From positions 1-64,000 of the forward strand of contig NZ_SJPY01000005.1 in assembly GCF_007860185.1 (NCBI RefSeq): DNA of 64,000 nucleotides. The letters run 5' to 3'. This DNA comes from Novipirellula aureliae (GTDB taxonomy: Bacteria > Planctomycetota > Planctomycetia > Pirellulales > Pirellulaceae). The notes beneath the pieces were generated by a model. The model was not told the origin of the DNA. It worked only from the letters and a program-made list of their open reading frames with translations, and made no database searches. Of this stretch, positions 1 through 14,974 are shown in pieces; within the stretch, counting starts at the first letter, position 1, and each line of letters begins with the position of its first letter. The translations under genes were made by a program, and so were the position numbers.

Positions 1-927
1 TCGTTCAATCAGTGTCGTCGCTGGCGAAGACGGCTTGAACTAGCCAATGCAAGGAACTGGAAGGCCGCAGCGAACGATTCCGCCGACAGGCTGGGTGGGG
101 CACTCGACATTCTGCGAATGCGGTCGACTCACGCCATCGACAATTTGACTCGCCAGACCAAGCCGCATCTCGAACCGACGGAAACGTCCGTCTATCGGGA
201 CATCGAAGGGCTCCGCGGCGAGTTTGAACACGTGACGATCGATCGTGCAAACCAGCGAATTACGGTTCGGACATCAAGTATCTCACTGGAGTACGTTGAA
301 CTGGGAAGTTTCGAGATTTTCTTGAACTGGAAATTTATCAAAGAGACGTCGCCCTACGACGTGCTCGCAGTGGAACCGAACTACCCATCATCCAACCACA
401 GCGTTACCCATCCTCACGTGCAAGGCGAATCGCTTTGTGAAGGGGAAGGTTCCGACGCGATCCGGCGTGCCCTCGATGAGGGCCGCATCTATGACTTCTT
501 CTGCATCGTCGATCACGTGCTTCGGAATTACAACCCCGATTCGGCCTACGTGCAAATCGAAGATTGGAACGGAGTCAGTTGCAAAGCATGCGGCGACAAC
601 GTCGACCAAGACGAAGTCGTTGGCTGCTGTAAATGTGAAACTGTACTTTGCCTGGATTGCAGCACATCGTGCGATTCGTGCGGCGACCGGTTTTGCAGTG
701 AGTGCATCTCGTCCTGTGATTGCTGTGGCGATGATGTCTGTCAAATGTGCCTGAAGTCGTGCAACGACTGCGGCGATTCTTTCTGTAACACCTGTCTCTT
801 TGAAGGAACCTGTGATGATTGCATCAGCAAACAAAACGAAGCGAGCGAAGAAGAAAGCCGCAACACCGTACAAACGGTCGCTGCGGTTCACGCCATATGC
901 GATGGCAAAGCTACTGTACCTGCGTGA
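1..927 (+). CDS. E2 (UBC)-like protein fused to a tandem Cys-only zinc array, 5' partial
   Basis: The frame is open from base 1, so the N-terminus lies outside the window; the first internal ATG is at 118. Counting from that ATG, residues about 25-150 resemble an E2 fold: a helix, then beta strands, a YP (89-90), HPH (98-100) and a candidate catalytic Cys107 in GESLCEG, followed by helices. Residues about 155-240 carry repeated CxxCGDxxCxxC units with no histidines, which suggests zinc binding of RING-like or treble-clef type. E2 and RING proteins act together in ubiquitin ligation, and the JAB and E1 genes immediately downstream support such a role here. The E2 call is by motif only. The 3' end overlaps the JAB gene by 113 bases. 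The ubiquitin-like substrate gene is not visible and may lie upstream of the window. Confidence 0.7.
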   Translation, partial: SFNQCRRWRRRLELANARNWKAAANDSADRLGGALDILRMRSTHAIDNLTRQTKPHLEPTETSVYRDIEGLRGEFEHVTIDRANQRITVRTSSISLEYVELGSFEIFLNWKFIKETSPYDVLAVEPNYPSSNHSVTHPHVQGESLCEGEGSDAIRRALDEGRIYDFFCIVDHVLRNYNPDSAYVQIEDWNGVSCKACGDNVDQDEVVGCCKCETVLCLDCSTSCDSCGDRFCSECISSCDCCGDDVCQMCLKSCNDCGDSFCNTCLFEGTCDDCISKQNEASEEESRNTVQTVAAVHAICDGKATVPA

Positions 928-1486
928 CGTCGGCCCCAGCGAAGTCGGGGGGTTCGGCATCTCCAGCGCTGACGATCTGCTACTCGTCGAAGACATCCAA
1001 CTTGTTGAACAAGTCTGTTCGGTCGTCTCGGTCGAATTTGACGACGACAGTGTCGCGGACTTCTTCGACCAACAGGTCGACATGGGACGACAACCGGAGC
1101 AATTCGCCAGAATCTGGATTCACACGCACCCGGGCGCTTCGCCGTCCCCAAGCGGCACGGATGAGGAAACGTTCGAGCGTTGTTTCGGAGGCGTAAATTG
1201 GGCGGTGATGCACATCATCGCTGTAGAAGGCAACACCTACACGCGAGCACGTTTCAACGTCGGCCCCGGCACCGAACGACGCCTGCGGTCTCGTGTCGAG
1301 TTCGACTTCGAGTTCCCCGCAGCCGATCACGAAGCGTGGTTTATCGAATACTGTGACAACGTGACCGTCGACGATCCGTTTACGTCGCGTCGTCCGTTTG
1401 CCGAGTCTTACGACTCGGACTGGTGGGAGCAAGCTCCTTCAGCAGCGGATCGGTGGAGCGACAGTCTTTTGGAGGCAGTCAGTTGA
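815..1486 (+). CDS. JAB/MPN (JAMM) metalloprotease, putative deubiquitinase-like
   Basis: A 223-residue JAB-domain protein. It shows the complete JAMM signature: E43 (EVGGFG), then H103-x-H105-x7-S113-x2-D116 in the stretch [16 protein letters not shown]. These are the zinc ligands and catalytic residues used to cleave isopeptide bonds or to process ubiquitin-like precursors. The ATG at 815 is preferred over the upstream TTG at 800 because AAGGA lies about eight bases upstream. It overlaps the E2-like gene by 113 bases and the E1 gene by four bases, so the three are probably translated together. Inferred role: maturing or removing the ubiquitin-like modifier handled by its neighbours. Confidence 0.9.
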
Positions 1487-2148
1487 ACGCGGCTCAGAAT
1501 CGTTTTGAACGTCAAAGCCAACTGGTCCCCATGAACCGGTTGGCGGATGTCACCGCAACGGTGATCGGCGTCGGCGCGATCGGTCGACAAGTTGCGTTGC
1601 AACTCGCGTCAATCGGAACGCCGCGAATCCAATTGATCGACTTCGATCGCGTTGATTTGTCCAACACGACAACGCAGGGCTACCGAAAGCACGAGGTTGG
1701 ATGGACGAAGCCGTTTGCCGCGTCACAAGCCATCAACGAAATCGACCCCACCATCGAAGCCACCCGGCTCGAAGATCGTTTTCGTCCGCGCCAAGAGATC
1801 GGCAACGCGGTGTTCTGTTGCGTCGACTCGATCGTGGCGCGAACAGCGATTTGGCGTTCGATTCGATCGCGTGTTGGTTTTTGGACCGATGGTCGGATGC
1901 TAGGCGAAGTGCTGCGAGTGCTATCCGTCACGGACAGCGATGCCGAAGCCCACTACGCTTCAACACTCTTCGCCACGTCCGAAGCCCAGCAAGGAACTTG
2001 CACATCGCGAAGCACGATCTATGCCGCAAGCATCGCAGCGGGGATCATGATCCATCAGTTCACACGCTGGCTCCGCGACATCCCAACCGACGCCGACACC
2101 AGCGTAAACCTGCTATCAGGCGAATGGACCGTCCACGACGCTTCCTAA
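1483..2148 (+). CDS. ThiF/E1-like adenylating enzyme
   Basis: A 222-residue Rossmann-type E1 domain. Visible features are the nucleotide loop GVGAIG (29-34), acidic residue D55 after the second strand ([11 protein letters not shown]), N61, basic residues R69 and K76, and a candidate catalytic C173 in QGTCTSRS. ThiF/E1 proteins adenylate the C-terminal glycine of a ubiquitin-like protein and may pass it to a cysteine. The TTG at 1483 is chosen: GGAGG lies at 1471-1475 and TTGA overlaps the stop of the JAB gene. A GTG at 1423 would force a long overlap. The protein is a minimal single E1 domain lacking the extra domains of eukaryotic E1. Confidence 0.88.
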
Positions 2149-2215
2149 TGAAACGAGCAGGGCACAAGCTTTCACCAAGGCACTCAGCCCCAACTCGTTC
2201 TCGTACGGAGGTCGA

Positions 2216-2359
2216 ATGGAGGGACTAGCAGGTTGGTTCATCATCGGCTTCGTCGGATGGTGGTTTTACAAAACCGGCAAACGCACCGGCAGCCGCAAGG
2301 GCTACGGCTACAACGTCGGACGCAGCCGAAGCAGACGCGATCACCACCGACGCCGCTGA
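2216..2359 (+). CDS. 47-residue membrane peptide with basic tail
   Basis: A small ORF with GGAGG at 2207-2211 just before the ATG. It encodes one hydrophobic helix (LAGWFIIGFVGWWFY) followed by a strongly basic Gly/Arg/His-rich tail ending HHRRR. It is the last gene before the terminator at 2365, so it probably belongs to the E2/JAB/E1 transcript. It does not end in a Gly-Gly motif, so it is not an obvious ubiquitin-like modifier. No family recognised; a membrane anchor or substrate for the conjugation enzymes is speculation. Confidence 0.6.
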   Translation: MEGLAGWFIIGFVGWWFYKTGKRTGSRKGYGYNVGRSRSRRDHHRRR

Positions 2360-2364
2360 CCACC

Positions 2365-2411
2365 GGAACGTCGTGGCCGCCCTTCGGGGCGGTCGCGGCG
2401 TTCCTTTTTTT
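2365..2411 (+). terminator. Rho-independent terminator of the E2/JAB/E1 cassette
   Basis: An 18-base stem (GGAACGTCGTGGCCGCCC pairing with GGGCGGTCGCGGCGTTCC, with a few G-T pairs) closes on a TTCG tetraloop and is followed directly by a run of T. It lies six bases after the stop of the 47-residue ORF and ends the plus-strand cassette. Confidence 0.92.
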
Positions 2412-2456: not shown

Positions 2457-2822
2457 TCAACTCGTTTCCAAATTCTCGGCAGCTAACGCGACAAGATCGA
2501 CATTGCGAGCCAGAAAGGTAAACGGGCGATCGCGTACAGGATCGTACGCTTCAAAGACGGCTCGCATCGCCTGATCGAGCATGGCTTTTACAAAACGCAG
2601 CCCGAGGTGGTCGGAGATCACCAAGAGTTCCGTCTCACCAAGCCCGCCCGATGTGTTCGAGTTCTTTGCAAGGGAATAGAGGTGCCCTTCGTGATACATC
2701 GTAAACCAATCGTCCCCGAGCGAACGTCGCGTTTCCTTGACGTCCGTCGGTGCGATCTTCGACTTCAGTACCGTCAACGACCCGCCGGCAATCTCGATTG
2801 AAAATCCGTTCAGTTGCAGCAT
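2457..2822 (-). CDS. hypothetical protein, 121 aa
   Basis: A soluble, slightly acidic protein of unrecognised family, with a beta-rich N-terminal half and a helical C-terminal half. It is the last of three small minus-strand ORFs (3354-2457) that converge on the cassette terminator. Codon use resembles that of neighbours and the overlapping plus-strand frame (2737-3546) looks artefactual, which supports this strand. Function unknown. It could be an accessory of the E2/JAB/E1 cassette, but only proximity suggests that. Confidence 0.55.
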   Translation of the reverse strand: MLQLNGFSIEIAGGSLTVLKSKIAPTDVKETRRSLGDDWFTMYHEGHLYSLAKNSNTSGGLGETELLVISDHLGLRFVKAMLDQAMRAVFEAYDPVRDRPFTFLARNVDLVALAAENLETS

Positions 2823-5944: not shown

Positions 5945-7510
5945 GTGCGAAGGGAAACAAAATTGACCGCCACTGAGAAAACAATTCGGGAGAAACTAGC
6001 TGCCAATCTTGAGATGATTGAGCCAGGGCTGTCTTTGATTGAACAAGAGTATCACCTTCCGAACGTTTGGGGCGGAAAAGGATTCGTCGACATTCTCGCA
6101 AGAGATGCTTCGGACATGCTCGTCATCATTGAGCTCAAAAGAAGCAACAATTCTGCGCGGCAGGCGATCCACGAAATTTTCAAATATGCTGCGCTTTGTC
6201 GAGCCCAAATGGGAGTGCCGGATCACAAGGTACGATGCCTTGTGATTTCTACGGAATGGCACGAGCTATTGGTTCCATTTGCTGAGTCTCGCGCAAGGGC
6301 GGACATGCAAATGAGCGGATATGAGTTGGTGGTCGATTCTTCAGGGAATCCGACCGTCGTTGCCGAGGTTGTCGTACCAGAACTTACTGGGGCACTGGAC
6401 CTATTTCGGACCCATAGCAACTTCCTTTTTGCGGACAAAGATGACCGCGATGCGGCTTCCCAGCGGGTGATCGAAGCGGCCAAAGAAAACGGTGCTAGTG
6501 GATTCATCACAGTATTGCTTGAGTACGAAGGACACCATCCTGCCGTCATACATCGTTTCAGCGTTTACCTAGTACCGACGGCGATTGCACCCAATTTGAG
6601 AAAGCCGCTTGAGCATTTCGTAATGGAGGAAAACGAAGATGCCGAGGAGGGATTCGATCTTCAGTTTGCGATGCAGGAAGAGCTACTTGGTCGCGTGTCG
6701 GGCACACTTGGAGCAATTGCAGACGAGTTCTGTATCGGTAGCCCCGAACATTTCTCTGCAATGCTGCATCAGGGATGGAAACCCAAAAAAACACTGAGAG
6801 AGGGACAACTTGCATCGTCGGATTTTTACTCCGATGAACAAATCGTGCAAATGATTCACGGAATGGAAGGCGCAAACGCGTTGCAGTTCATGCGAGTTTT
6901 CAAGTCGTCGAATCAACTTGATTTCGACGATGCTGTTAAGTCCTCGCAACGCGCGTTGCTTGGAAACGAGAATTGGACGCTGGCGTGCGATGTTTTGTTT
7001 AGCAGGGGCAAGCTTGAGACTACTTCCGTTTTCGCGGACATCTACAACTGCCTTTGTCTTCCAGAGACACTCTATGCGATTGCGAAGAATGGCGACTTTG
7101 GCTATTCGCCCAAGTTGCAAATTGTCGTCAATCAAAGCGATGGAAAGTCCTCAGAGGCTTTTTCGGGATTCGTTGCTTGGGACGGAGACACCTGTCCTGA
7201 GTCACCAGACGTATTCTTCCAATCGCTTTCGGGTGGTCTGGAGAATTTCTACATGCAAAAGCAAGTCGGAGCAGCTTGGCAACTCGACGAGAAAGCGATG
7301 CACCTTCATGGGTTGACGTATGGTTTGGTTCGCCTTGCGATTCGGGACGGGGCGATCGCAAGTGGAAGTATTTCGTATGATGGAGGAGAGACATGGCGAG
7401 ATACCGAGCCTGGTATCCATGCTTGCAACCTCAATGATTTCGTTGAGCGAAACGCGAAATACGTAGATGCGTTCACCAACTACATTGACGGCTACGTCGG
7501 CAGATTTTAA
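5945..7510 (+). CDS. NucS/DUF91-like endonuclease domain protein
   Basis: 521 codons from GTG 5945. A TTG at 5963 preceded by AAGGGA is an equally good start and gives 515 residues. Residues about 40-70 contain a PD-(D/E)XK nuclease core: GGKGFVDILARD, then MLVIIELKR, the D and ExK residues of the NucS C-terminal (DUF91) family. The remaining 400 residues are unrecognised and contain no obvious helicase or methylase motif. The role is probably DNA cleavage, perhaps in defence, given the neighbouring three-Cys-motif pair and restriction relic. The gene stands alone, with the dead DoxX gene upstream. Confidence 0.65.
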   Translation: MRRETKLTATEKTIREKLAANLEMIEPGLSLIEQEYHLPNVWGGKGFVDILARDASDMLVIIELKRSNNSARQAIHEIFKYAALCRAQMGVPDHKVRCLVISTEWHELLVPFAESRARADMQMSGYELVVDSSGNPTVVAEVVVPELTGALDLFRTHSNFLFADKDDRDAASQRVIEAAKENGASGFITVLLEYEGHHPAVIHRFSVYLVPTAIAPNLRKPLEHFVMEENEDAEEGFDLQFAMQEELLGRVSGTLGAIADEFCIGSPEHFSAMLHQGWKPKKTLREGQLASSDFYSDEQIVQMIHGMEGANALQFMRVFKSSNQLDFDDAVKSSQRALLGNENWTLACDVLFSRGKLETTSVFADIYNCLCLPETLYAIAKNGDFGYSPKLQIVVNQSDGKSSEAFSGFVAWDGDTCPESPDVFFQSLSGGLENFYMQKQVGAAWQLDEKAMHLHGLTYGLVRLAIRDGAIASGSISYDGGETWRDTEPGIHACNLNDFVERNAKYVDAFTNYIDGYVGRF

Positions 7511-7625
7511 GAGTACAATCTGCTGAACAGCCCAGCCTGTTTTCACACCTTGGAACAGTTTAGCTTCACGGTGATGCGGTTCGACAAACCCCAATCAGCT
7601 GGAAATCGCCAAGATCGTAACCGGA

Positions 7626-8876
7626 TCAATTCATTCCCGGCAAGAACATCGGACGATGTTCTGAGAGAACAATCCGATCGTCGAGCGTCTGGGGAACGTG
7701 AATTCTCTTCTCGCCGGCGGGACCGATGAAGCGGCATGCACTTTCAGCTTTCAGCTCGCCGAGTGACTCGATGATTCGCTGTCTATCCGCTGGTGTTTCA
7801 TTTGCTACCGATTCAATAAGTTGGCCAACCGTTGGTGCTTCGCCCAGTCTACGAATCTGCGGGCCAAGTTCGTTGAACAAGGCTTCTCGCGTCGCTTGAT
7901 TGGCTTCCGCATCGAAGCGGAAGATGCTCGATTGGTTCCAGTTTTCACGGTTAAACTCAAGCATCCGTAGGCCGGGAAATCCCTCATGCAGCGAATTGTT
8001 TTGATGTCGCCAATGAGTGACTTTCATTACGTCATTCGCCTCCTTGTGGTTACTGAGATGCAAGAGCCAATAGCCCCAGCCGGAATGCTGGACCATAAAT
8101 GGACTGACAAATTTTGCGACGCAGTTTTGTTTGATCTCGTGCAAGTAATGCGAGACCAGCGACTTTCGCCAATCACTGAGTCGTACAGCATTGTCGCGGG
8201 CCGATATTGCGTCGCCGAGATCGACACCAAACTTGTCCGTTGCAACACGAAACGCATCCTTGTCGTTAGCGAACATCGCCAGAGATTCAACGCTGATATT
8301 CCAAATGATCTCCGCTTTAGGAAGATGATTTAGAATTCGGTTGCAGTCACGTAGTGTTGCTTGGTTCCAGCCACATTGGTCGAGAAAGAAGATCGCTTTC
8401 TGCCGCGGCCGTGATTTGATCCTTTCAAGCACCACCGAAAGAAACCGATCGAATTTCAAATTGTCGACCAGGATTTTTCCGGACTCCACATCTTCGCGGT
8501 AGCGAGAGTCGGCCAAATCGGTCTTCAGACGAAGGTGTGCGTCACGGTCGGCATCAGAGAAGTGAAACCTCGCGTTAATTCTGAATGGCTTTGTCTTTTT
8601 CGCTGCTATTGCCGCCTCCGAATCACGAACCGCTCCAATCATCACTTTTGGCGAACCATTGATAGGAGTTTTGGTTTCGGCGTCTATCAGCACACCACCC
8701 CCAGCAAATGCGTCAATCAGCTCGATGTTCACATAGTCCATCCGCTTCTCTTGCGAGATGGTCGGAAAGTATGCCATCAGATAGTCGCGGAGGATTTCCA
8801 GCTTGATGCGACTATGGACCGGACAAAGCGGTGTTCGGCCATCCTTCCATGAGAAAGCGTCTTGTGACTTGACCAT
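7626..8876 (-). CDS. tcmP: Three-Cys-motif partner protein TcmP
   Basis: 416 residues from ATG 8876, with GGAGG just upstream; the TTG at 8888 overlaps that ribosome site. The N-terminus (KLEILRDYLMAYFPTI, then IELIDAFAGGGV) and the mid-region FFLDQCGWNQ match my memory of the three-Cys-motif partner family, which looks like a Rossmann-type methyltransferase-like fold. These proteins are found beside DUF5131/Gp37-Gp68 three-Cys proteins, as is the case here, with 26 bases between the genes. Biochemical function of the pair is unknown; a mobile or defence role is inferred from its distribution. Confidence 0.8.
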   Translation of the reverse strand: MVKSQDAFSWKDGRTPLCPVHSRIKLEILRDYLMAYFPTISQEKRMDYVNIELIDAFAGGGVLIDAETKTPINGSPKVMIGAVRDSEAAIAAKKTKPFRINARFHFSDADRDAHLRLKTDLADSRYREDVESGKILVDNLKFDRFLSVVLERIKSRPRQKAIFFLDQCGWNQATLRDCNRILNHLPKAEIIWNISVESLAMFANDKDAFRVATDKFGVDLGDAISARDNAVRLSDWRKSLVSHYLHEIKQNCVAKFVSPFMVQHSGWGYWLLHLSNHKEANDVMKVTHWRHQNNSLHEGFPGLRMLEFNRENWNQSSIFRFDAEANQATREALFNELGPQIRRLGEAPTVGQLIESVANETPADRQRIIESLGELKAESACRFIGPAGEKRIHVPQTLDDRIVLSEHRPMFLPGMN

Positions 8877-8902
8877 ATGATCCTCCAAATGATTGTGGTT
8901 TG

Positions 8903-9727
8903 CTAGGTAACCACTTCAGGATAAGCATCCCATGTTTGACCGTCTAGCGTTCGACCCGCGTTGCCTTTGCCCATCCGAACCACCGCTGCATCAGTCTTTC
9001 TAGGTTTCTTGTCGCTTCGATCACGGATATCGCCCTGGCGACCTATTTTGACAATTTTTTTCTCAGCCGTTCCCTCCGGTGCCGGCGCGTAATCACCGTA
9101 CTGTTTGAAGAAGAATGCGGTATCCTGCTTTTCGCACAGTTTCCGCAACTTGCGAAACCAATCTGGATGCGAGGGTCGAGAGCCGGGGCCGCTCTCTCCA
9201 CCAACAATCGCCCAGTCAATGCCGGTCAGGTCAACTCGATCGACCGGCCCGATCAGCGGCTCAAACGAAATAAACCGGACTGCTGCGGGCACCTGGCGCA
9301 AATGATCGACCCGGAAGGTGTAGTCTTGCGATTCGACACTGGTCCCTATCCAAACGTTGTCTGGCCAATCGAAGCGGTCAGCTTCCCGAGCGAGTCGCTG
9401 TGATCGCTTAGTGAGAATTTGAAATTGATGCCAGTGTGCCCGCCGACAAACGTCAAAAACCCGTTCGATGAACTCGACGGGGACATCGCGGTGGAATAAG
9501 TCGCTCATTGAGTTGACAAACACTTTACGTGGTTTTTTCCACGACAGAGGCTTTTCCAGCACGTGATCGTGAGTCGTTAGCTCGAAAGCGTTGCGATAAT
9601 TATCGACACCCATCGCCTGCAAACGATGCGACATTCGCAAGGCATAGCAATTCTCACAACCAGGGCTGATCTGGGTACATCCGGTCACCGGATTCCAGGT
9701 CTCGTCGGTCCATTCAATGTCTGACAT
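8903..9727 (-). CDS. DUF5131 (phage Gp37/Gp68-like) three-Cys-motif protein
   Basis: 274 residues. ATG at 9727 is chosen because GGAGGAG lies directly upstream; the upstream extension to 9772 is not conserved-looking. The N-terminus WTDETWNPVTGC, then SPGCENCYA, is the defining Cx6CxxC motif, which resembles a radical-SAM iron-sulfur site. Other family signatures are VFVNSMSDLFH, ILTKRSQRL, VWIGTSVES, RFISFEPLIGP and WAIVGGESGPG. It is first in a two-gene operon with TcmP. Confidence 0.88.
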   Translation of the reverse strand: MSDIEWTDETWNPVTGCTQISPGCENCYALRMSHRLQAMGVDNYRNAFELTTHDHVLEKPLSWKKPRKVFVNSMSDLFHRDVPVEFIERVFDVCRRAHWHQFQILTKRSQRLAREADRFDWPDNVWIGTSVESQDYTFRVDHLRQVPAAVRFISFEPLIGPVDRVDLTGIDWAIVGGESGPGSRPSHPDWFRKLRKLCEKQDTAFFFKQYGDYAPAPEGTAEKKIVKIGRQGDIRDRSDKKPRKTDAAVVRMGKGNAGRTLDGQTWDAYPEVVT

Positions 9728-9951
9728 CGTTCTCTCCTCCCTGGAGATAAGGTTACGAGCCAGCCGTGACACGTCTGGTCACGGCAGTGTGTATTTTTTC
9801 CGTCGATTTTAGCAGAACAGCGAAACCGAATCTTCGCCAGTTTGACGGGGAAAGGCAACGAAGGGCCAGATTGCTACAATCTCGGGCCGACGAAAGCGGC
9901 GAAACACGCGAAATCAGAGGGGTTTGTAACGCCGGGAGATATACGCCCACC

Positions 9952-10191: not shown

Positions 10192-11085
10192 TTAAAACGC
10201 CGGAGGCACGATGCCTTTGGCTTTGAGGGCCGCGAGGTACTTGTCTGGTTCGGCGACCAGCTTTTTGGCGCAGCCGGGGCAGCAGATGTAGACGGCTTTT
10301 CCGTTGACATTGACCTTGCCTGGGACGCCCATGCCGCCCAGCGGTTCGTCCATCACCGGACAGGTTTTCTGTGCGGCGATGGCCGCGGCGTCGGCAAGCG
10401 TGGATTTGAAAACGCCCTCGCGGACTTGTTCACCTTTGGCGGTGTAGTACTTGGTGAGGTACTGGTCGGGTGAGGCTTCGACTTTCTTGGTGCAGCCCGC
10501 ACAGCAGACGAACAGTGACTTGTTACCGATCGTGACCTTGGGCGGCTTGCCCATGGTGCCGAGCGGTTGGCCGCTGACGGGGCACGTGGCTTGGAGGATG
10601 ATGAGGAGTTCGTCAGAGAGCTTACCGCTGGCGAGTTTTCCTATCGTATGGAAGACCAGAGGCTGGCTTCCGATGTCGGTAATCTCGACATTCATGTGTA
10701 ACGGTTGGTCAACGACTTTGGAAAGGTCGATGCCGACGCCGATCGCGAGGTTCTTGAGCTTTTTGAGTTGGTAGGTGTATTCCTTTTCACCTTCGCCAAC
10801 TCGCAGTTTCAGTGTGCCTGTGGCATTCGGTGGCGCGATGGGCTGATCGTTCTGGCCGAGGATCATGAACATGATTCCCTTTTCGGCGATCACCGTTTCG
10901 ACTCGGCTGTCGCCAACAGTTTGCACAGTGCCGCCGTGTGGGCCAGTTGCCGCGGCGGCGTGGCTGTGGCCAGCGTGGTCGTCGGCCGCGTGGTCGTGCG
11001 CGGCGTGGGTGTCCTGTGCAGTCGAGAGTTGGGGCGACGTGAGCAGCGTGGCTGCGACGATTGCGGTGAGGATACGAAGTTTCAT
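10192..11085 (-). CDS. Secreted TRASH/YHS-like metal-binding protein
   Basis: 297 residues from ATG 11085, which starts a clear signal peptide (MKLRILTAIVAATLL, cleavage near STAQ). A His-rich stretch (HDHAADDHAGHSH) follows. The C-terminal half holds two similar modules of the form TCPVxxxPLGxMGxPxKV, then VCCAGCTKKVEASPDQYL and ICCPGCAKKLVAEPDKYL, resembling TRASH/YHS metal-binding knuckles. It is probably a periplasmic copper or silver binding protein. The neighbouring lipoprotein (11542-11135) has one copy of the same module. The start at 11223 would hide the signal peptide. Confidence 0.75.
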   Translation of the reverse strand: MKLRILTAIVAATLLTSPQLSTAQDTHAAHDHAADDHAGHSHAAAATGPHGGTVQTVGDSRVETVIAEKGIMFMILGQNDQPIAPPNATGTLKLRVGEGEKEYTYQLKKLKNLAIGVGIDLSKVVDQPLHMNVEITDIGSQPLVFHTIGKLASGKLSDELLIILQATCPVSGQPLGTMGKPPKVTIGNKSLFVCCAGCTKKVEASPDQYLTKYYTAKGEQVREGVFKSTLADAAAIAAQKTCPVMDEPLGGMGVPGKVNVNGKAVYICCPGCAKKLVAEPDKYLAALKAKGIVPPAF

Positions 11086-11134: not shown

Positions 11135-11542
11135 TTACTTTTTGAGCTTGGCGAGGTACTTGTCAGGGTCGGCGAGGAGTTTGTCTTTACAGCCGTCGCA
11201 GCAAATCCAGACGGACTTGCCATTCACGTCGACCTTCTCGGGGGCTCCCATGGTGCCGAGCATTTCGCCGCTGACGGGGCACATGTGTTGGGCCATGGCG
11301 GACTCGTAATCTTGGGGCGATAACTCTTTCAAACCCGACATCATCTTGGCCATAGGCGAATCGGCATCGGCGGTGGCTTGGTCGCCGTGATCGTGATCGG
11401 CATGGTCAACGTGGTCGTCAGCCGTGTCGCTGGCGGGAGTCGCGGGTGGCGTCACAGGATCGGATTCGGGCGAGTTGCAGCCGTAAATGCCGACGATGAG
11501 CATCCCGCCGAGTAGGAAAGGGATAAATTTCGAGAGTCGCAT
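11135..11542 (-). CDS. Lipoprotein with one TRASH/YHS-like metal-binding module
   Basis: 135 residues from ATG 11542, with a lipoprotein signal (FLLGGMLIVGIYGC). There follows a His/Asp-rich linker (DDHVDHADHDHGD) and then one module MCPVSGEMLGTMGAPEKV plus WICCDGCKDKLLADPDKYL. The module is the same type as the two in the downstream secreted protein. The two probably form an operon that binds metal outside the inner membrane. Metal specificity cannot be read from the sequence. Confidence 0.75.
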   Translation of the reverse strand: MRLSKFIPFLLGGMLIVGIYGCNSPESDPVTPPATPASDTADDHVDHADHDHGDQATADADSPMAKMMSGLKELSPQDYESAMAQHMCPVSGEMLGTMGAPEKVDVNGKSVWICCDGCKDKLLADPDKYLAKLKK

Positions 11543-11728
11543 GGGGTTTTGCCTTCGTGGATGAGGAGGGCGGATTTTTCGATTGACGTGCATTTGGATG
11601 CTTGGGGGGGCGATTTCTTCACGCGGAACGAAAAAATTCTGCTAATTCACCTAAATGCGTGAAGAAACGCCCGCTTCGGGCATCCAAAACCACATCAGCA
11701 GAAACATCTCGCAGAGAATGAGTGGGTT

Positions 11729-12637
11729 ATGTCAACCAATGATTGCAAAACGGTGCAGCCATACCTGTCGGCTTATCACGACGGCGAGCTGTCGGCTGGA
11801 CAAGTGGCAACTGTCACTCAGCACGTTGAGTCATGCGAATCGTGTGCGGCTGAGTTGAGTGCGTTCAAGTCACTCGGGTCGGCTTTCGCACAGGCACCTA
11901 TGCCCGCAAAACCGTCTGATCTATGGCAGCGGATTGAGCGTGAACTTCCAACGGCCGCCGAACCGGTGACGTTGTCGAAACGATTCAGCGTTTGGGTTCG
12001 CGAGTCGTCATACGGTGCTGGGCTGGTGTCGATGGCGGCGTCCGTTTTGGTGCTGCTGGGTGCAGGGCTGTGGTACGGCGAAGAAAGAGGGGGAGTGAAG
12101 GAGATGGGGAGTGGAGGAGCAATGGCGATGCATTCGCACGATGGCGAAGAAGCGATGTCGGCTGAACACATGGTCGAGTTCGCGGGCGTGATGGACGACT
12201 ATTTGCAGAAATTGCCCAGCGATCCAGACGGAGCGGAACAGATGCTGCTTACCAAGTACGACGGTGAAAAAGTCGACGCGGACGGAGCAGTAAAGTTGGT
12301 CGGCTATCGTCCCATCGTTTCGAGTGGATTGCCCCAGGGCTATTCGTTGGCGTCGACCAGCGTGTTGAAGATGCCTTGCTGCACTTGTGTGAAGGCAGTT
12401 TGCAAACGAAGTGACGGGTCGACGCTGGTTCTGTTTGAACACGACGACGAAGAGACGGCTTGGTTTGGCGATCGCCGCCAGAGCATGGCGATGTGCGGCG
12501 ACAAAGATTGCTGTCTCGTCGATCTCGATTCCAGCATCGCGGCAACTTGGAAGCAAGGCACTCGAAGCGTCACAGCCGTTGGCGTTCGCGACCAAGAGGA
12601 AGTGGCGAAGCTGGTGACCTGGTTGGACAAATCCTAA
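11729..12637 (+). CDS. Anti-sigma factor with zf-HC2 domain
   Basis: 302 residues. The N-terminal zinc finger AYHDGELS, then HVESCESCAAEL, has the H-x3-C-x2-C arrangement of anti-sigma factors that hold ECF sigma factors at the membrane. One transmembrane helix follows (about residues 97-115). The outer part contains Cys residues (MPCCTCVKAVCKR, CGDKDCC) that could sense metal. It starts the adaptor/RND operon with 9 bases to the next gene. No sigma gene lies upstream; the only ECF sigma in the window is at 58679. A GGGAGT-type repeat run occurs at 12081-12120 inside the gene. Confidence 0.85.
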   Translation: MSTNDCKTVQPYLSAYHDGELSAGQVATVTQHVESCESCAAELSAFKSLGSAFAQAPMPAKPSDLWQRIERELPTAAEPVTLSKRFSVWVRESSYGAGLVSMAASVLVLLGAGLWYGEERGGVKEMGSGGAMAMHSHDGEEAMSAEHMVEFAGVMDDYLQKLPSDPDGAEQMLLTKYDGEKVDADGAVKLVGYRPIVSSGLPQGYSLASTSVLKMPCCTCVKAVCKRSDGSTLVLFEHDDEETAWFGDRRQSMAMCGDKDCCLVDLDSSIAATWKQGTRSVTAVGVRDQEEVAKLVTWLDKS

Positions 12638-12646
12638 AGCGAACTC

Positions 12647-14974
12647 ATGAACGAATTTTTCAAACAACACCGCGGGAAACTCTGGATTGCACAAGCGGTG
12701 GCGTTTGTGCTGCTCGGTGTCTTCGTTGCATCTTGGTTTAGCGGCAGTTCGGATGAGCCGAAAGTTTCCACGACTTCTGCTACGGCGAACTCGGAAGCAA
12801 TGCAAAGTAAGCCGTCGATCTGGACTTGCAGCATGCATCCTCAAATACGTCGCGATGGTCCGGGCAAGTGTCCGATCTGCGGAATGGACTTGGTCCCGGT
12901 CAGGGAGTCGGCCGACGGAGTTCGCACCGTTTCGATCAGTTCAGAAATCAAAAGTCTGATGAACGTGCAAGTGAGTCCCGTGCGTCGGCAATACGTGACG
13001 GCCGAAATTCGCATGGTCGGCAAAGTTGACTACGACGAAACTCGCCTCGCCCACATCACCGCGTGGGTTCCCGGTCGCTTGGAACGCATGTTCGTTGACT
13101 TCACCGGCGTCGAAGTCAAAAAAGGCGATCACATGGTGCAAATCTACAGCGAGTCACTCTACACCGCACAAGAAGAACTGTTGGCGGTTACCAAGCGTGA
13201 TCGACCGCAGAATTCTTCACGATTCATCGAACCACTCGATCTCGCCGAGTCCGCGCGTGAGAAGCTGCGTTTGCTCGGTTTGACAACGGAGCAGATTCAA
13301 ACCATCGAACAACGCGGCAAGTCTTCCGAAACGGTCACGATCTATTCGCCCGTCGGCGGTGTCGTGGTTGCGAAGAACAGGCAAGAAGGCGACCGCGTTC
13401 AAACGGGCGACCGCATCTACACTGTCGCTGACTTAAAGGTCTTATGGGTTCAGATGGATGCTTACGAATCCGACTTGGCTTGGTTGCGGTACGGGCAGGA
13501 CGTAGAGTTCACAACAGAAGCTTATCCCGGCGAATTGTTCCGCGGCCGAATCGCGTTCATTGACCCGGTGCTAAACGAAGACACTCGGACGGTGAAGGTG
13601 CGAGTCAACGTACCGAACGATGATGGTCGCTTAAAACCGGAAATGTTCGTGCGAGCAATCGTGCAGAGTGACATCGCGGCGGGCGGTCGAGTGCTCAACG
13701 CTTCGCTGGCGGGAAAGTGGATCAGCCCGATGCACCCGGAAATCATAAAAGACCAACCGGGCGATTGTGACATTTGCGGCATGCCGTTGGTGCGAGCCGA
13801 GTCGCTTGGCTATGTCACGGCGGAGCCGACGAGTGCCGCGAAGCCGCTGATCGTGCCGGTGAAGGCTGTGTTGCTGACGGGAACGCGAGCGATTGTGTAC
13901 GTCCAGATTCCCGACGCGGACAAGCCGACTTACGAAGGTCGCGAGATTGTGATCGGTCCGCGTGCCGGCGACTTCTACCTAGTGAAGTCGGGGCTCGAAG
14001 AAGGCGACTTGGTCGTGACCAATGGCAACTTCAAACTCGATAGTGCGCTGCAGATTTCTGCGAAGCCTTCGATGATGACGCCTCAAGGTGGCGGCGGCGG
14101 TGGGCACAATCACGGAGGCATGGAAATGCCAAAGGCAGACGACGGCGTCACGATGGACGCGAGTCCGATGAACTTGGTGCCAGCGGTACGGGATGCGATG
14201 CAAGGAGTTGTTGAGCAATACAAAACGATTCAAGAAAAAGTTGAAGCTGCGAACCTCGCAGAGATTCGCGAAGGCTATGACCAACTCGGTAAAGCTGTCG
14301 AGGCAGTGCCGGCGGACTTGATCGGCCCACAAATGCGACCGCAGTGGTCCGAGGTCGCGATGCTATTGCGGAACGATGTCACTGAAGGCCGCGAGGTCAA
14401 TTCCATGCGTGAAGCCGATCGGGTCTTCGCGTTAACTCGGCAGCACATTGATCAGATGAAGGCTCAGTTCCCGTTGCCGATGTCACACGACGAAATGCAG
14501 ATGCCGGCGATGGCGAACATGGATGCTCCGCCTGAAGTCGCTGAGCAACTCAGTGGTTTTGTCGCTCCCTACTTGAAACTTAGTCAAGCACTCGCGACAG
14601 ACGATCTGGAAGTCGCGAAGCGAGCGGTTGAGCCGTTGCATCAGCGATTGGCGGGCTTGCTGCCGATCGTCTCCGAAGCCAAAGCGGCCGAGGTGTGGAG
14701 CAAAGAGAAACGCGACTTGTCCGAGATCATTGCAAGATTGCAGAAGGCAAACGACCTCGCCGCCTTGCGTAGCGGGTTCGCGTTGCTGTCCGAACAGATG
14801 TTGAGCCTCGAGCGGATGTTCGGTCTGCCGACTGACGAAACGCTTTATGAGCTTCATTGCCCGATGGCGTTTGAGGGACGTGGTGCATCGTGGATTCAGA
14901 CCGACGATGCGGTTCGTAATCCGTACTATGGCGCGTCGATGCTGAAGTGCGCCGACAAAGTCGAAAAGTTGTAG
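12647..14974 (+). CDS. CusB-like RND efflux adaptor with two heavy-metal-binding motifs
   Basis: 775 residues, long for the family. It has an N-terminal membrane anchor (about 12-32). A first heavy-metal-binding domain WTCSMHPQIRRDGPGKCP then CGMDLVPV lies near 62-88. A HlyD-type barrel with long hairpin follows, and a second domain (ISPMHPEIIKDQPG, then CGMPLV) near 362-385. A Gly/His loop leads to a helical C-terminal extension ending CPMAFEGRGASW, then NPYYGASMLKC, a further likely metal site. It links the inner-membrane RND pump to an outer-membrane channel. The RND gene follows after three bases. The partial adaptor at 61870 is a paralogue with the same layout. Confidence 0.9.
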   Translation: MNEFFKQHRGKLWIAQAVAFVLLGVFVASWFSGSSDEPKVSTTSATANSEAMQSKPSIWTCSMHPQIRRDGPGKCPICGMDLVPVRESADGVRTVSISSEIKSLMNVQVSPVRRQYVTAEIRMVGKVDYDETRLAHITAWVPGRLERMFVDFTGVEVKKGDHMVQIYSESLYTAQEELLAVTKRDRPQNSSRFIEPLDLAESAREKLRLLGLTTEQIQTIEQRGKSSETVTIYSPVGGVVVAKNRQEGDRVQTGDRIYTVADLKVLWVQMDAYESDLAWLRYGQDVEFTTEAYPGELFRGRIAFIDPVLNEDTRTVKVRVNVPNDDGRLKPEMFVRAIVQSDIAAGGRVLNASLAGKWISPMHPEIIKDQPGDCDICGMPLVRAESLGYVTAEPTSAAKPLIVPVKAVLLTGTRAIVYVQIPDADKPTYEGREIVIGPRAGDFYLVKSGLEEGDLVVTNGNFKLDSALQISAKPSMMTPQGGGGGGHNHGGMEMPKADDGVTMDASPMNLVPAVRDAMQGVVEQYKTIQEKVEAANLAEIREGYDQLGKAVEAVPADLIGPQMRPQWSEVAMLLRNDVTEGREVNSMREADRVFALTRQHIDQMKAQFPLPMSHDEMQMPAMANMDAPPEVAEQLSGFVAPYLKLSQALATDDLEVAKRAVEPLHQRLAGLLPIVSEAKAAEVWSKEKRDLSEIIARLQKANDLAALRSGFALLSEQMLSLERMFGLPTDETLYELHCPMAFEGRGASWIQTDDAVRNPYYGASMLKCADKVEKL

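What the first reader, a model, noticed from the sequence alone, without database searches (positions are those of the whole stretch)
1..2411. Ubiquitin-like conjugation cassette: E2-like/zinc-array fusion, JAMM protease, E1 and a membrane peptide in one terminated unit
Seen: overlapping genes encode an E2-like protein (YP, HPH, candidate catalytic Cys at 436-438) with a C-terminal Cys array, a protease with a perfect ExnHxHx7SxxD motif, and a ThiF protein with GxGxxG and a candidate Cys173; a strong terminator ends the unit. Known: E1, E2 and JAB genes cluster in several bacterial systems (Bil, Bub, multi-ubiquitin cassettes), some anti-phage, and bacterial RING/treble-clef proteins with E2 have been noted. 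Inference: the direct E2-zinc fusion plus a basic membrane peptide is a distinct variant, perhaps with E2 and ligase in one chain.
Basis: partly seen in the sequence, partly recalled or inferred. Interest (0 to 1): 0.82.

Follow-up and report, generated by a model that had tools for sequence, protein, structure and literature searches.

The report
Mobile bacterial ubiquitin-like tagging cassette
A planctomycete bacterium carries several copies of a mobile gene cassette that looks able to attach and remove a small ubiquitin-like tag, with the tag-transferring enzyme fused to a zinc-finger array that may do the job of a separate ligase.

Summary
Window 1-2404 is the 3' end of a larger cassette cut by the contig start: E2-zinc protein, JAMM/JAB protease, ThiF-type E1, membrane peptide, strong terminator. 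A 95%-identical copy in the same genome and relatives elsewhere supply the missing 5' part: DUF1257, DUF2997, AAA+ ATPase, a conserved helical protein, small proteins and, directly before the E2, a ThiS-like ubiquitin-like protein ending KIEG-A plus a variable tail. Over 39 loci the order Ubl, E2-zinc, JAB, E1 has one exception (a truncated copy). HPH-x6-C is invariant in 37 of 37 E2s; the E1 Cys in 35 of 35. AlphaFold gives a UBC/RWD-like topology for the E2 part, without a statistically significant structural match. A large serine recombinase lies upstream in 14 of 22 testable loci; a few copies lie beside Argonaute or restriction genes. Best reading: a mobile Ubl-conjugation system whose E2 carries its own zinc E3-like or substrate-binding module, probably used in conflict with phages or mobile DNA. 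Conjugation is well supported by inference, defence only by context, ligase activity untested. New variant of a known kind; the survey most likely to mention it could not be read here.

The parts
1..927 (+). E2-zinc protein, 5' end cut by the contig start (308 of 341 aa): helical N-part, UBC/RWD-like domain about residues 58-187, zinc array residues 194-274
409..438 (+). E2 active-site motif HPHVQGESLC; candidate catalytic Cys at 436-438
   Evidence: HPH-x6-C in 37 of 37 homologues
580..822 (+). zinc array: ten CxxC pairs spaced rather like RING/FYVE/PHD-type cross-brace fingers
   Evidence: weak sequence and structure matches to RING, FYVE-like and PHD chains
815..1486 (+). JAB/JAMM metalloprotease, 223 aa from ATG 815 (start not proven; a TTG at 800 is possible)
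   Evidence: Pfam Prok-JAB 27.3 bits over cut-off 25; motif
1483..2148 (+). ThiF-type E1, 221 aa from TTG (a GTG at 1423 is the other candidate start); Cys173 at 1999-2001
   Evidence: Pfam ThiF 7e-20; Cys invariant 35 of 35
2216..2359 (+). 47-aa peptide, one likely membrane helix and a basic tail
   Evidence: homologues in 12 further loci
2365..2404 (+). intrinsic terminator closing the unit

Best explanation
The window holds the 3' end of a mobile ubiquitin-like conjugation cassette. Proposed path: JAB trims the Ubl precursor after the conserved KIEG (or KIEGA); E1 adenylates the new C-terminus and takes it on Cys173; it passes to Cys146 (window numbering) of the E2 domain; the zinc array in the same chain holds the substrate or activates the E2~Ubl, as an E2/E3 hybrid would; JAB can remove the tag. 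In most copies an AAA+ ATPase module sits in the same element and could remodel tagged proteins. The cassette travels mostly on large-serine-recombinase elements and probably serves in conflict with phages or other mobile DNA. Shown: gene content and order, conserved catalytic residues, E2-like predicted topology, recombinase linkage, multi-copy patchy spread, selection on the proteins. Inferred: conjugation itself, trimming, built-in ligase role, defence role, any AAA+ action on tagged targets.
For: Ubl, E2-zinc, JAB, E1 in fixed order: Ubl before E2 in 37 of 38 loci with upstream sequence, JAB after it in 38 of 38 and E1 in 35 of 35 where the contig goes on. Ubl: of six scanned, one passes the ThiS model (22.8 bits, cut-off 22.5) and five fall below it (14.3 to 22.4). 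Ubl C-terminus: Gly in 37 of 37, followed by 1 to about 36 residues that begin with Ala (36) or Gly (1) and otherwise vary, the pattern of a precursor that is trimmed. E2 motif invariant 37 of 37. Of the 50 Foldseek rows shown, 39 are entries with an E2 enzyme, 20 of these being UFC1; 46 of 50 rows align to the E2 part. Distant stand-alone relatives of the E2 without the zinc part lie beside a JAB-like gene in two genomes, one also with E1 and a GG-ending Ubl. Serine recombinase upstream on the same strand in 14 of 22 loci. Neighbours: class II Argonaute at L055/L056, type I restriction at L053.
Against: No fold match reached Foldseek E 0.001 (best 0.059) and VIA Z stayed under 8 (best 7.3), a level that may mean only a common arrangement; the loop with the catalytic Cys has pLDDT under 50. 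No Pfam E2 or prokaryotic RING model hits, and the E2 core alone hits no solved structure even at E 10. Defence evidence is the neighbourhood of a few loci, not counted against a background. Eight of 22 loci show no serine recombinase and six of 22 lack the AAA+ module. The Ubl does not end in GG.
Confidence: 0.7

Rival explanations
1. The zinc array is not a ligase part: it is a binding or oligomerisation module (for a protein partner, membrane complex or nucleic acid) and another factor, or none, does E3 work.
For: No ligase-specific feature was found; only weak matches to zinc fingers of several kinds, including PHD and FYVE-like, not only RING. The two stand-alone E2 relatives have no zinc part.
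Against: The array is as conserved as the active site in the 37 homologues aligned (one, L062, is cut short by a stop within the array in that assembly).
Confidence: 0.4
2. The cassette serves the mobile element itself (regulates recombinase, copy number or transfer) and is not a host defence.
For: Linked to serine recombinases in 14 of 22 loci, up to 7 matches in a genome (G047); the AAA+/F backbone occurs without the Ubl module, in part also beside recombinases.
Against: The Ubl module also lies beside unrelated vehicles: a TniQ gene at L029, a tyrosine integrase at L008, and places with no recombinase seen (L030, L031, L036, L055); L053, L055 and L056 have defence genes next door.
Confidence: 0.3
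3. ThiS/MoaD-like sulfur carrier system for a small molecule, not protein tagging.
For: Ubl and E1 are ThiS/ThiF-like; JAB next to ThiS-like proteins is known from sulfur-transfer pathways (recalled).
Against: An E2-like protein with an invariant Cys is part of the cassette; I saw no biosynthetic enzyme among the cassette families.
Confidence: 0.08
4. The E2 domain is an inactive RWD/UEV-like scaffold.
For: The best VIA rows are RWD domains such as that of Knl1 (RWD label partly from my own knowledge).
Against: HPH-x6-C invariant 37 of 37, close to the canonical HPN-x7-C of E2s (canonical motif recalled).
Confidence: 0.1

Closest known systems
   Same: Homologous E2 (4.9e-9 and 1.6e-6), same HPH-x6-C spacing, adjacent JAB-like gene; L097 also E1 and Ubl
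   Different: No zinc array; Ubl of L097 ends GG; none of the other cassette families found within the stretches read; its JAB scores only 13.3 bits against Pfam cut-off 25
Prokaryotic Ubl operon types 6a-6e of Iyer et al. 2006 (PMC1779556; section 14 and passages read)
   Same: Ubl, E1, E2 and JAB in sporadic, often mobile operons; 6e also has a zinc-finger protein
   Different: 6a-6c fuse E1 and E2; the 6d E2 lacks the His before the Cys; the 6e E2-like domain lacks the Cys; section 14 describes no E2-zinc fusion and no AAA+ partner
FtsH-ternary Ubl systems (PMC7159879; passages read)
   Same: Ubl, E1, E2, JAB plus an AAA+ ATPase and a RING-type component, in planctomycetes among others
   Different: There Ubl is fused to E2 and RING is a separate gene, with vWA-MoxR partners; here Ubl is separate and zinc is fused to E2
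Bil (BilABCD), Bub, CBASS Cap2/Cap3
   Same: E1, E2, JAB logic of bacterial Ubl defence
   Different: E1 and E2 not fused; single-domain Ubl; only weak partial profile matches. Bub is recalled only; the paper is not held
Eukaryotic E2/E3 hybrids such as BIRC6 and UBE2O (recalled)
   Same: E2 domain and accessory ligase or substrate-binding parts in one chain
   Different: No evolutionary link tested

Membership tests
Bacterial Ubl-conjugation operon (broad kind) | Co-encoded Ubl, E1, E2 and JAB | tested here: met
   the window itself lacks the Ubl because the contig starts in the E2 gene
E2 enzyme | UBC fold | tested here: inconclusive
   leans to met: AlphaFold topology and 39 of 50 Foldseek rows are E2 entries (20 of them UFC1), but all at E above 0.05 and VIA Z under 8
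E2 enzyme | conserved catalytic Cys after an HPN-like motif | tested here: met
   HPH-x6-C in 37 of 37; loop modelled at low confidence
E2 enzyme | thioester with Ubl | not testable with these tools
   needs biochemistry
RING-type E3 | recognised RING fold or Pfam prokaryotic RING model | tested here: inconclusive
   no Pfam hit; weak RING, FYVE-like and PHD matches
Bil | BilA-D profiles | tested here: not met
   PADLOC: only E1 touches BilD, E 3.4e-4, among the 25 of 31 families shown
PRTRC system | PRTRC ThiF above cut-off | tested here: not met
   29.5 bits against cut-off 144.75
CBASS with Cap2/Cap3 | E1-E2 fusion protein and Cap3 above cut-off | tested here: not met
   E1 and E2 are separate genes; Cap3 model 13 bits against 200
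6A-MBL | cap2_3 fusion model above cut-off | tested here: not met
   31.9 bits against cut-off 320
FtsH-ternary Ubl system | vWA and MoxR partners, Ubl-E2 fusion | tested here: inconclusive
   Ubl and E2 are separate genes; vWA and MoxR were not searched for on their own
Large-serine-recombinase integrative element | Resolvase + Recombinase domain protein beside the cargo | tested here: met
   14 of 22 loci, 11 checked by Pfam; the window's own copy cannot be tested; element ends not mapped
Anti-phage defence system | protection from phage | not testable with these tools
   context only

The most novel reading that the evidence does not exclude
A bacterial E2/E3 hybrid: one polypeptide that both carries the Ubl thioester and selects or activates for substrate through a zinc array (20 Cys, room for five sites), on a self-moving cassette that combines with an AAA+ remodelling module to tag and dismantle phage or mobile-element proteins.
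Probability: 0.35. Interest if true: 0.85.

Novelty: new variant of a known kind. Interest (0 to 1): 0.66.

Why it matters
If it conjugates, it would give a compact, genetically portable ubiquitin-like pathway in which E2 and an E3-like module are one chain, useful for asking how E2-E3 partnerships arose. Its Ubl has a single conserved Gly followed by a variable tail, which makes JAB trimming directly testable. Its spread beside serine recombinases in Planctomycetota, and beside Argonaute and restriction genes in some hosts, makes a defence role testable too.

Tried and rejected
Family libraries: NCBIfam, PADLOC and PHROGs gave nothing for the E2-zinc protein, and Pfam only chance-level matches. 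PDB sequence search with the full profile gave weak zinc-finger matches (best 0.0026), and with the E2 core none. A Prok-E2_B search in 40 relatives gave no match over the cut-off (one of 40 below it). IMG/VR, plasmid and phage collections gave no homologue of the E2-zinc protein (those tools may leave out records near the window's genome). Protein F was folded (pLDDT 76) and matched nothing convincing in the PDB. Protein D looks TOPRIM-like to the eye, but Pfam does not call it in the two full copies scanned, so I claim nothing. I first thought the AAA+ module essential; six of 22 testable loci lack it. The AAA+/F backbone also occurs without Ubl genes: 16 F loci that I chose because no E2 match lay beside them hold no Ubl, E2 or E1 by my models, and one keeps a JAB-like gene without the HxH. 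I first took the JAB start Met as invariant; that count was produced by my own start-picking and is withdrawn. My E1 pattern misfired (31 of 35); the aligned column gives 35 of 35. Two MAG contigs labelled Chloroflexota and Emcibacter carry the E2-zinc form; of 251 and 249 genomes sampled from those groups (each total includes the MAG) none other did, so transfer and mis-binning are both open. 'No E2-zinc fusion in print' is not claimed: in the listings of searches I saw no title or abstract that describes it, but several lists were capped (20 of 29, 15 of 146, 12 of 141 papers shown), and Burroughs et al. 2011 (recalled as the key survey of prokaryotic RING/treble-clef and Ubl systems) and the Bub paper are not held.
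Full report
What is there. The window is bases 1-64000 of contig C5 (636 kb) of a 7.27-Mb genome; the finding sits at the very start of the contig. On the + strand: an open frame from base 1 to 927 (E2-zinc), JAB to 1486 (likely from ATG 815), E1 1483-2148 (TTG start sharing TTGA with the JAB stop; a GTG at 1423 is possible), a 47-aa membrane peptide 2216-2359, and a terminator 2365-2404.

The missing part. The same genome holds a second copy, 95% identical over 2.3 kb, at C5:285281-287563, two more distant copies on C7 and C14, and a fragment at C5:380068. In the second copy the E2-zinc protein is 341 aa, and the genes before it are, in order: serine recombinase, a lipoprotein-like membrane protein, DUF1257 (23.2 bits, cut-off 22.2; the C7 copy is just below at 21.6), DUF2997 (1e-12), a 192-aa protein (D), an AAA+ ATPase (Pfam AAA 3e-30; near full-length match to PHROG 8638, 1e-82), a 329-aa protein (F), two small proteins (G, H) and a 73-aa ThiS-like Ubl. 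So the reported unit is the tail of a cassette of up to 13 genes besides the recombinase. In Synechocystis DUF2997 and DUF1257 (ycf35) neighbour a ferredoxin gene (PMC4284462, one passage read), so these two are not specific to Ubl systems.

Conservation. I tested 39 loci holding the E2-zinc gene with profile models made from the cassette genes: 27 at length, the window among them, and 12 with 1.5-kb flanks (six near-duplicates, L048, L050, L052, L054, L057, L059, and two fragments, L041, L042, were left out beforehand). Several loci come from one genome. Ubl lies upstream next to E2 in 37 of the 38 that have any upstream sequence (the exception, L043, has 0.8 kb and a truncated E2); JAB downstream in 38 of 38 and E1 in 35 of 35 with room. 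The AAA+ gene is present in 16 of 22 loci with enough upstream sequence. The Ubl C-terminus is TPxKIEG followed by Ala (Gly in L033) and 0 to about 35 further residues in 36 of 37; the 37th reads KVQGA. E2: HPH-x6-C in 37 of 37 rows. JAB HTH-x7-S-x2-D: 34 of 38 by pattern, 36 of the 36 that can be read there; its Glu 36 of 36 that cover it; E1 Cys 35 of 35. The proteins in the window are under purifying selection against the L055 and L056 orthologues (dN/dS 0.04-0.14).

Fold. AlphaFold2 on the window protein with 13 homologues gave mean pLDDT 74, pTM 0.46, with helix 61-74, strands within 77-123, helices 149-159 and 163-175, and a zinc region at block means of 79-90 from residue 201 on; the active-site loop (129-148) is mostly under 50. 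Foldseek found no match under E 0.001; of the 50 rows listed, 39 are entries with an E2 enzyme (20 of them UFC1; others Cdc34, Rad6, Ubc13, bacterial CdnG-E2; Pex4p counted from my own knowledge) and ranks 3, 14 and 18 are PHD or FYVE-type fingers. VIA-align: best Z 7.3 (Knl1), CdnG-E2 5.9; 46 of 50 rows align to the E2 part, two short zinc fingers to the array, two rows to the N-terminal helices. That the 46 share the UBC/RWD fold is partly my own knowledge, and the tool warns that Z under 8 may mean only a common arrangement. Sequence profiles are silent. I take the UBC-like fold as likely, not proven. Independent support: a search with the E2 core found two distant stand-alone proteins (203- and 236-aa frames; 4.9e-9, 1.6e-6) with the same HPH-x6-C, each beside a JAB-like gene, one also beside a ThiF (9e-27) and a Ubl ending GG that is ThiS-like only below cut-off.

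Spread and mobility. Strong E2-zinc matches (E below 1e-80) occur in 23 of 296 genomes of the order (28 of 296 with any match) and 14 of 392 across the phylum (32 of 392 with any match, the rest zinc-array or partial only), with up to 7 matches in one genome (G047). Named carriers include Rhodopirellula solitaria, Rhodopirellula maiorica and Neorhodopirellula pilleata. None was found in the viral, phage or plasmid collections. A large serine recombinase lies upstream on the same strand in 14 of 22 testable loci: 11 confirmed by Pfam Resolvase and Recombinase domains, two by similarity to these, one, L049, by my profile alone and cut by its contig. The eight without are L008, L009, L029, L030, L031, L036, L055, L058; of these L029 has TniQ and L008 a phage-type integrase. 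Element ends were not mapped. Protein F occurs in 73 of 296 genomes of the order, more widely than the E2. In 16 E2-less F loci, chosen as such, 8 carry a conserved protein of about 400 aa after G/H (one copy scanned, no Pfam match) and 4 a PD-(D/E)XK nuclease. The nuclease also follows the Ubl module at L032, L033 and L044, and the 400-aa protein at L033. So the AAA+ backbone and the Ubl module are separable modules.

Neighbourhood. In L055 and L056 the cassette is followed by a 440-aa gene and a class II Argonaute (PADLOC 6e-219 for L055; L056 98% identical); in the window a 3.4-kb gap relative to both leaves only a 120-aa Argonaute remnant at 2457-2822(-). At L053 a type I restriction enzyme lies downstream. 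At L035 the large downstream protein has no PADLOC match. This is context from a few loci, not proof, and I did not measure how often random loci have such neighbours.

How it most likely works. Trimming of the Ubl by JAB, activation by E1, transfer to E2 Cys146, tagging of substrates with help of the fused zinc array, and reversal by JAB. E1, E2, JAB and Ubl together are the logic proposed for such operons (Iyer et al. 2006, PMC1779556; passages, section 14). The zinc array as ligase, the defence role and any AAA+ action on tagged proteins are inference.

Known or new. It meets the broad definition of a bacterial Ubl-conjugation operon but not the profile tests for Bil, PRTRC, CBASS Cap3 or 6A-MBL. 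The passages read of PMC7159879 describe FtsH-ternary systems with a Ubl-E2 fusion and a separate RING, the reverse arrangement. The review PMC11354881 was seen in passages only. The listings of paper searches showed me no description of this cassette, several of them capped, in an open-licence library. I could not read Burroughs et al. 2011, which I recall as the survey most likely to mention it, so priority is open.

Noticed in passing
window 2457-2822 (-): Remnant (120 aa, 96% identical) of a class II prokaryotic Argonaute; intact copies of 758 aa follow the same cassette in L055 and L056. A 3.4-kb stretch present in both is missing here right after the cassette.
   Followed up: partly
window 5945-9772: NucS-like nuclease gene (5945-7510) and two genes matching PADLOC candidate systems PDC-M30/M41 (7626-8888 and 8903-9772; the latter is DUF5131): a possible defence island beside the cassette.
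   Followed up: partly
window 1-2148 against L007 5417-7663: Synonymous divergence between the two copies rises from 0.017 (E2) through 0.12 (JAB) to 0.39 (E1), which suggests gene conversion between copies and may explain why the assembly breaks at the window start.
   Followed up: no
L085, rc 10365-10955: JAB-like gene in an F/AAA+ element without Ubl, E2 or E1; the HxH of the JAMM motif is missing.
   Followed up: no
L083 11466-12671, L094 9964-11328, L080 rc 11170-12690, also L033, L081, L084, L089, L092, L093: Conserved protein of about 400-500 aa in the slot after G/H, mostly in E2-less elements; at L033, L080, L081 and L094 a PD-(D/E)XK nuclease gene follows. The L083 copy has no Pfam match.
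   Followed up: partly
window 7523-7627 (-): Short translated match to the DUF1257 protein (54% over 35 aa, 8e-6); may be chance or a relic.
   Followed up: no
L072-L077 and other places: CxxC arrays similar to the zinc part occur in other frames of 159 to 1604 aa in other planctomycete families, so the array may exist apart from the E2, or the matches may be compositional.
   Followed up: no
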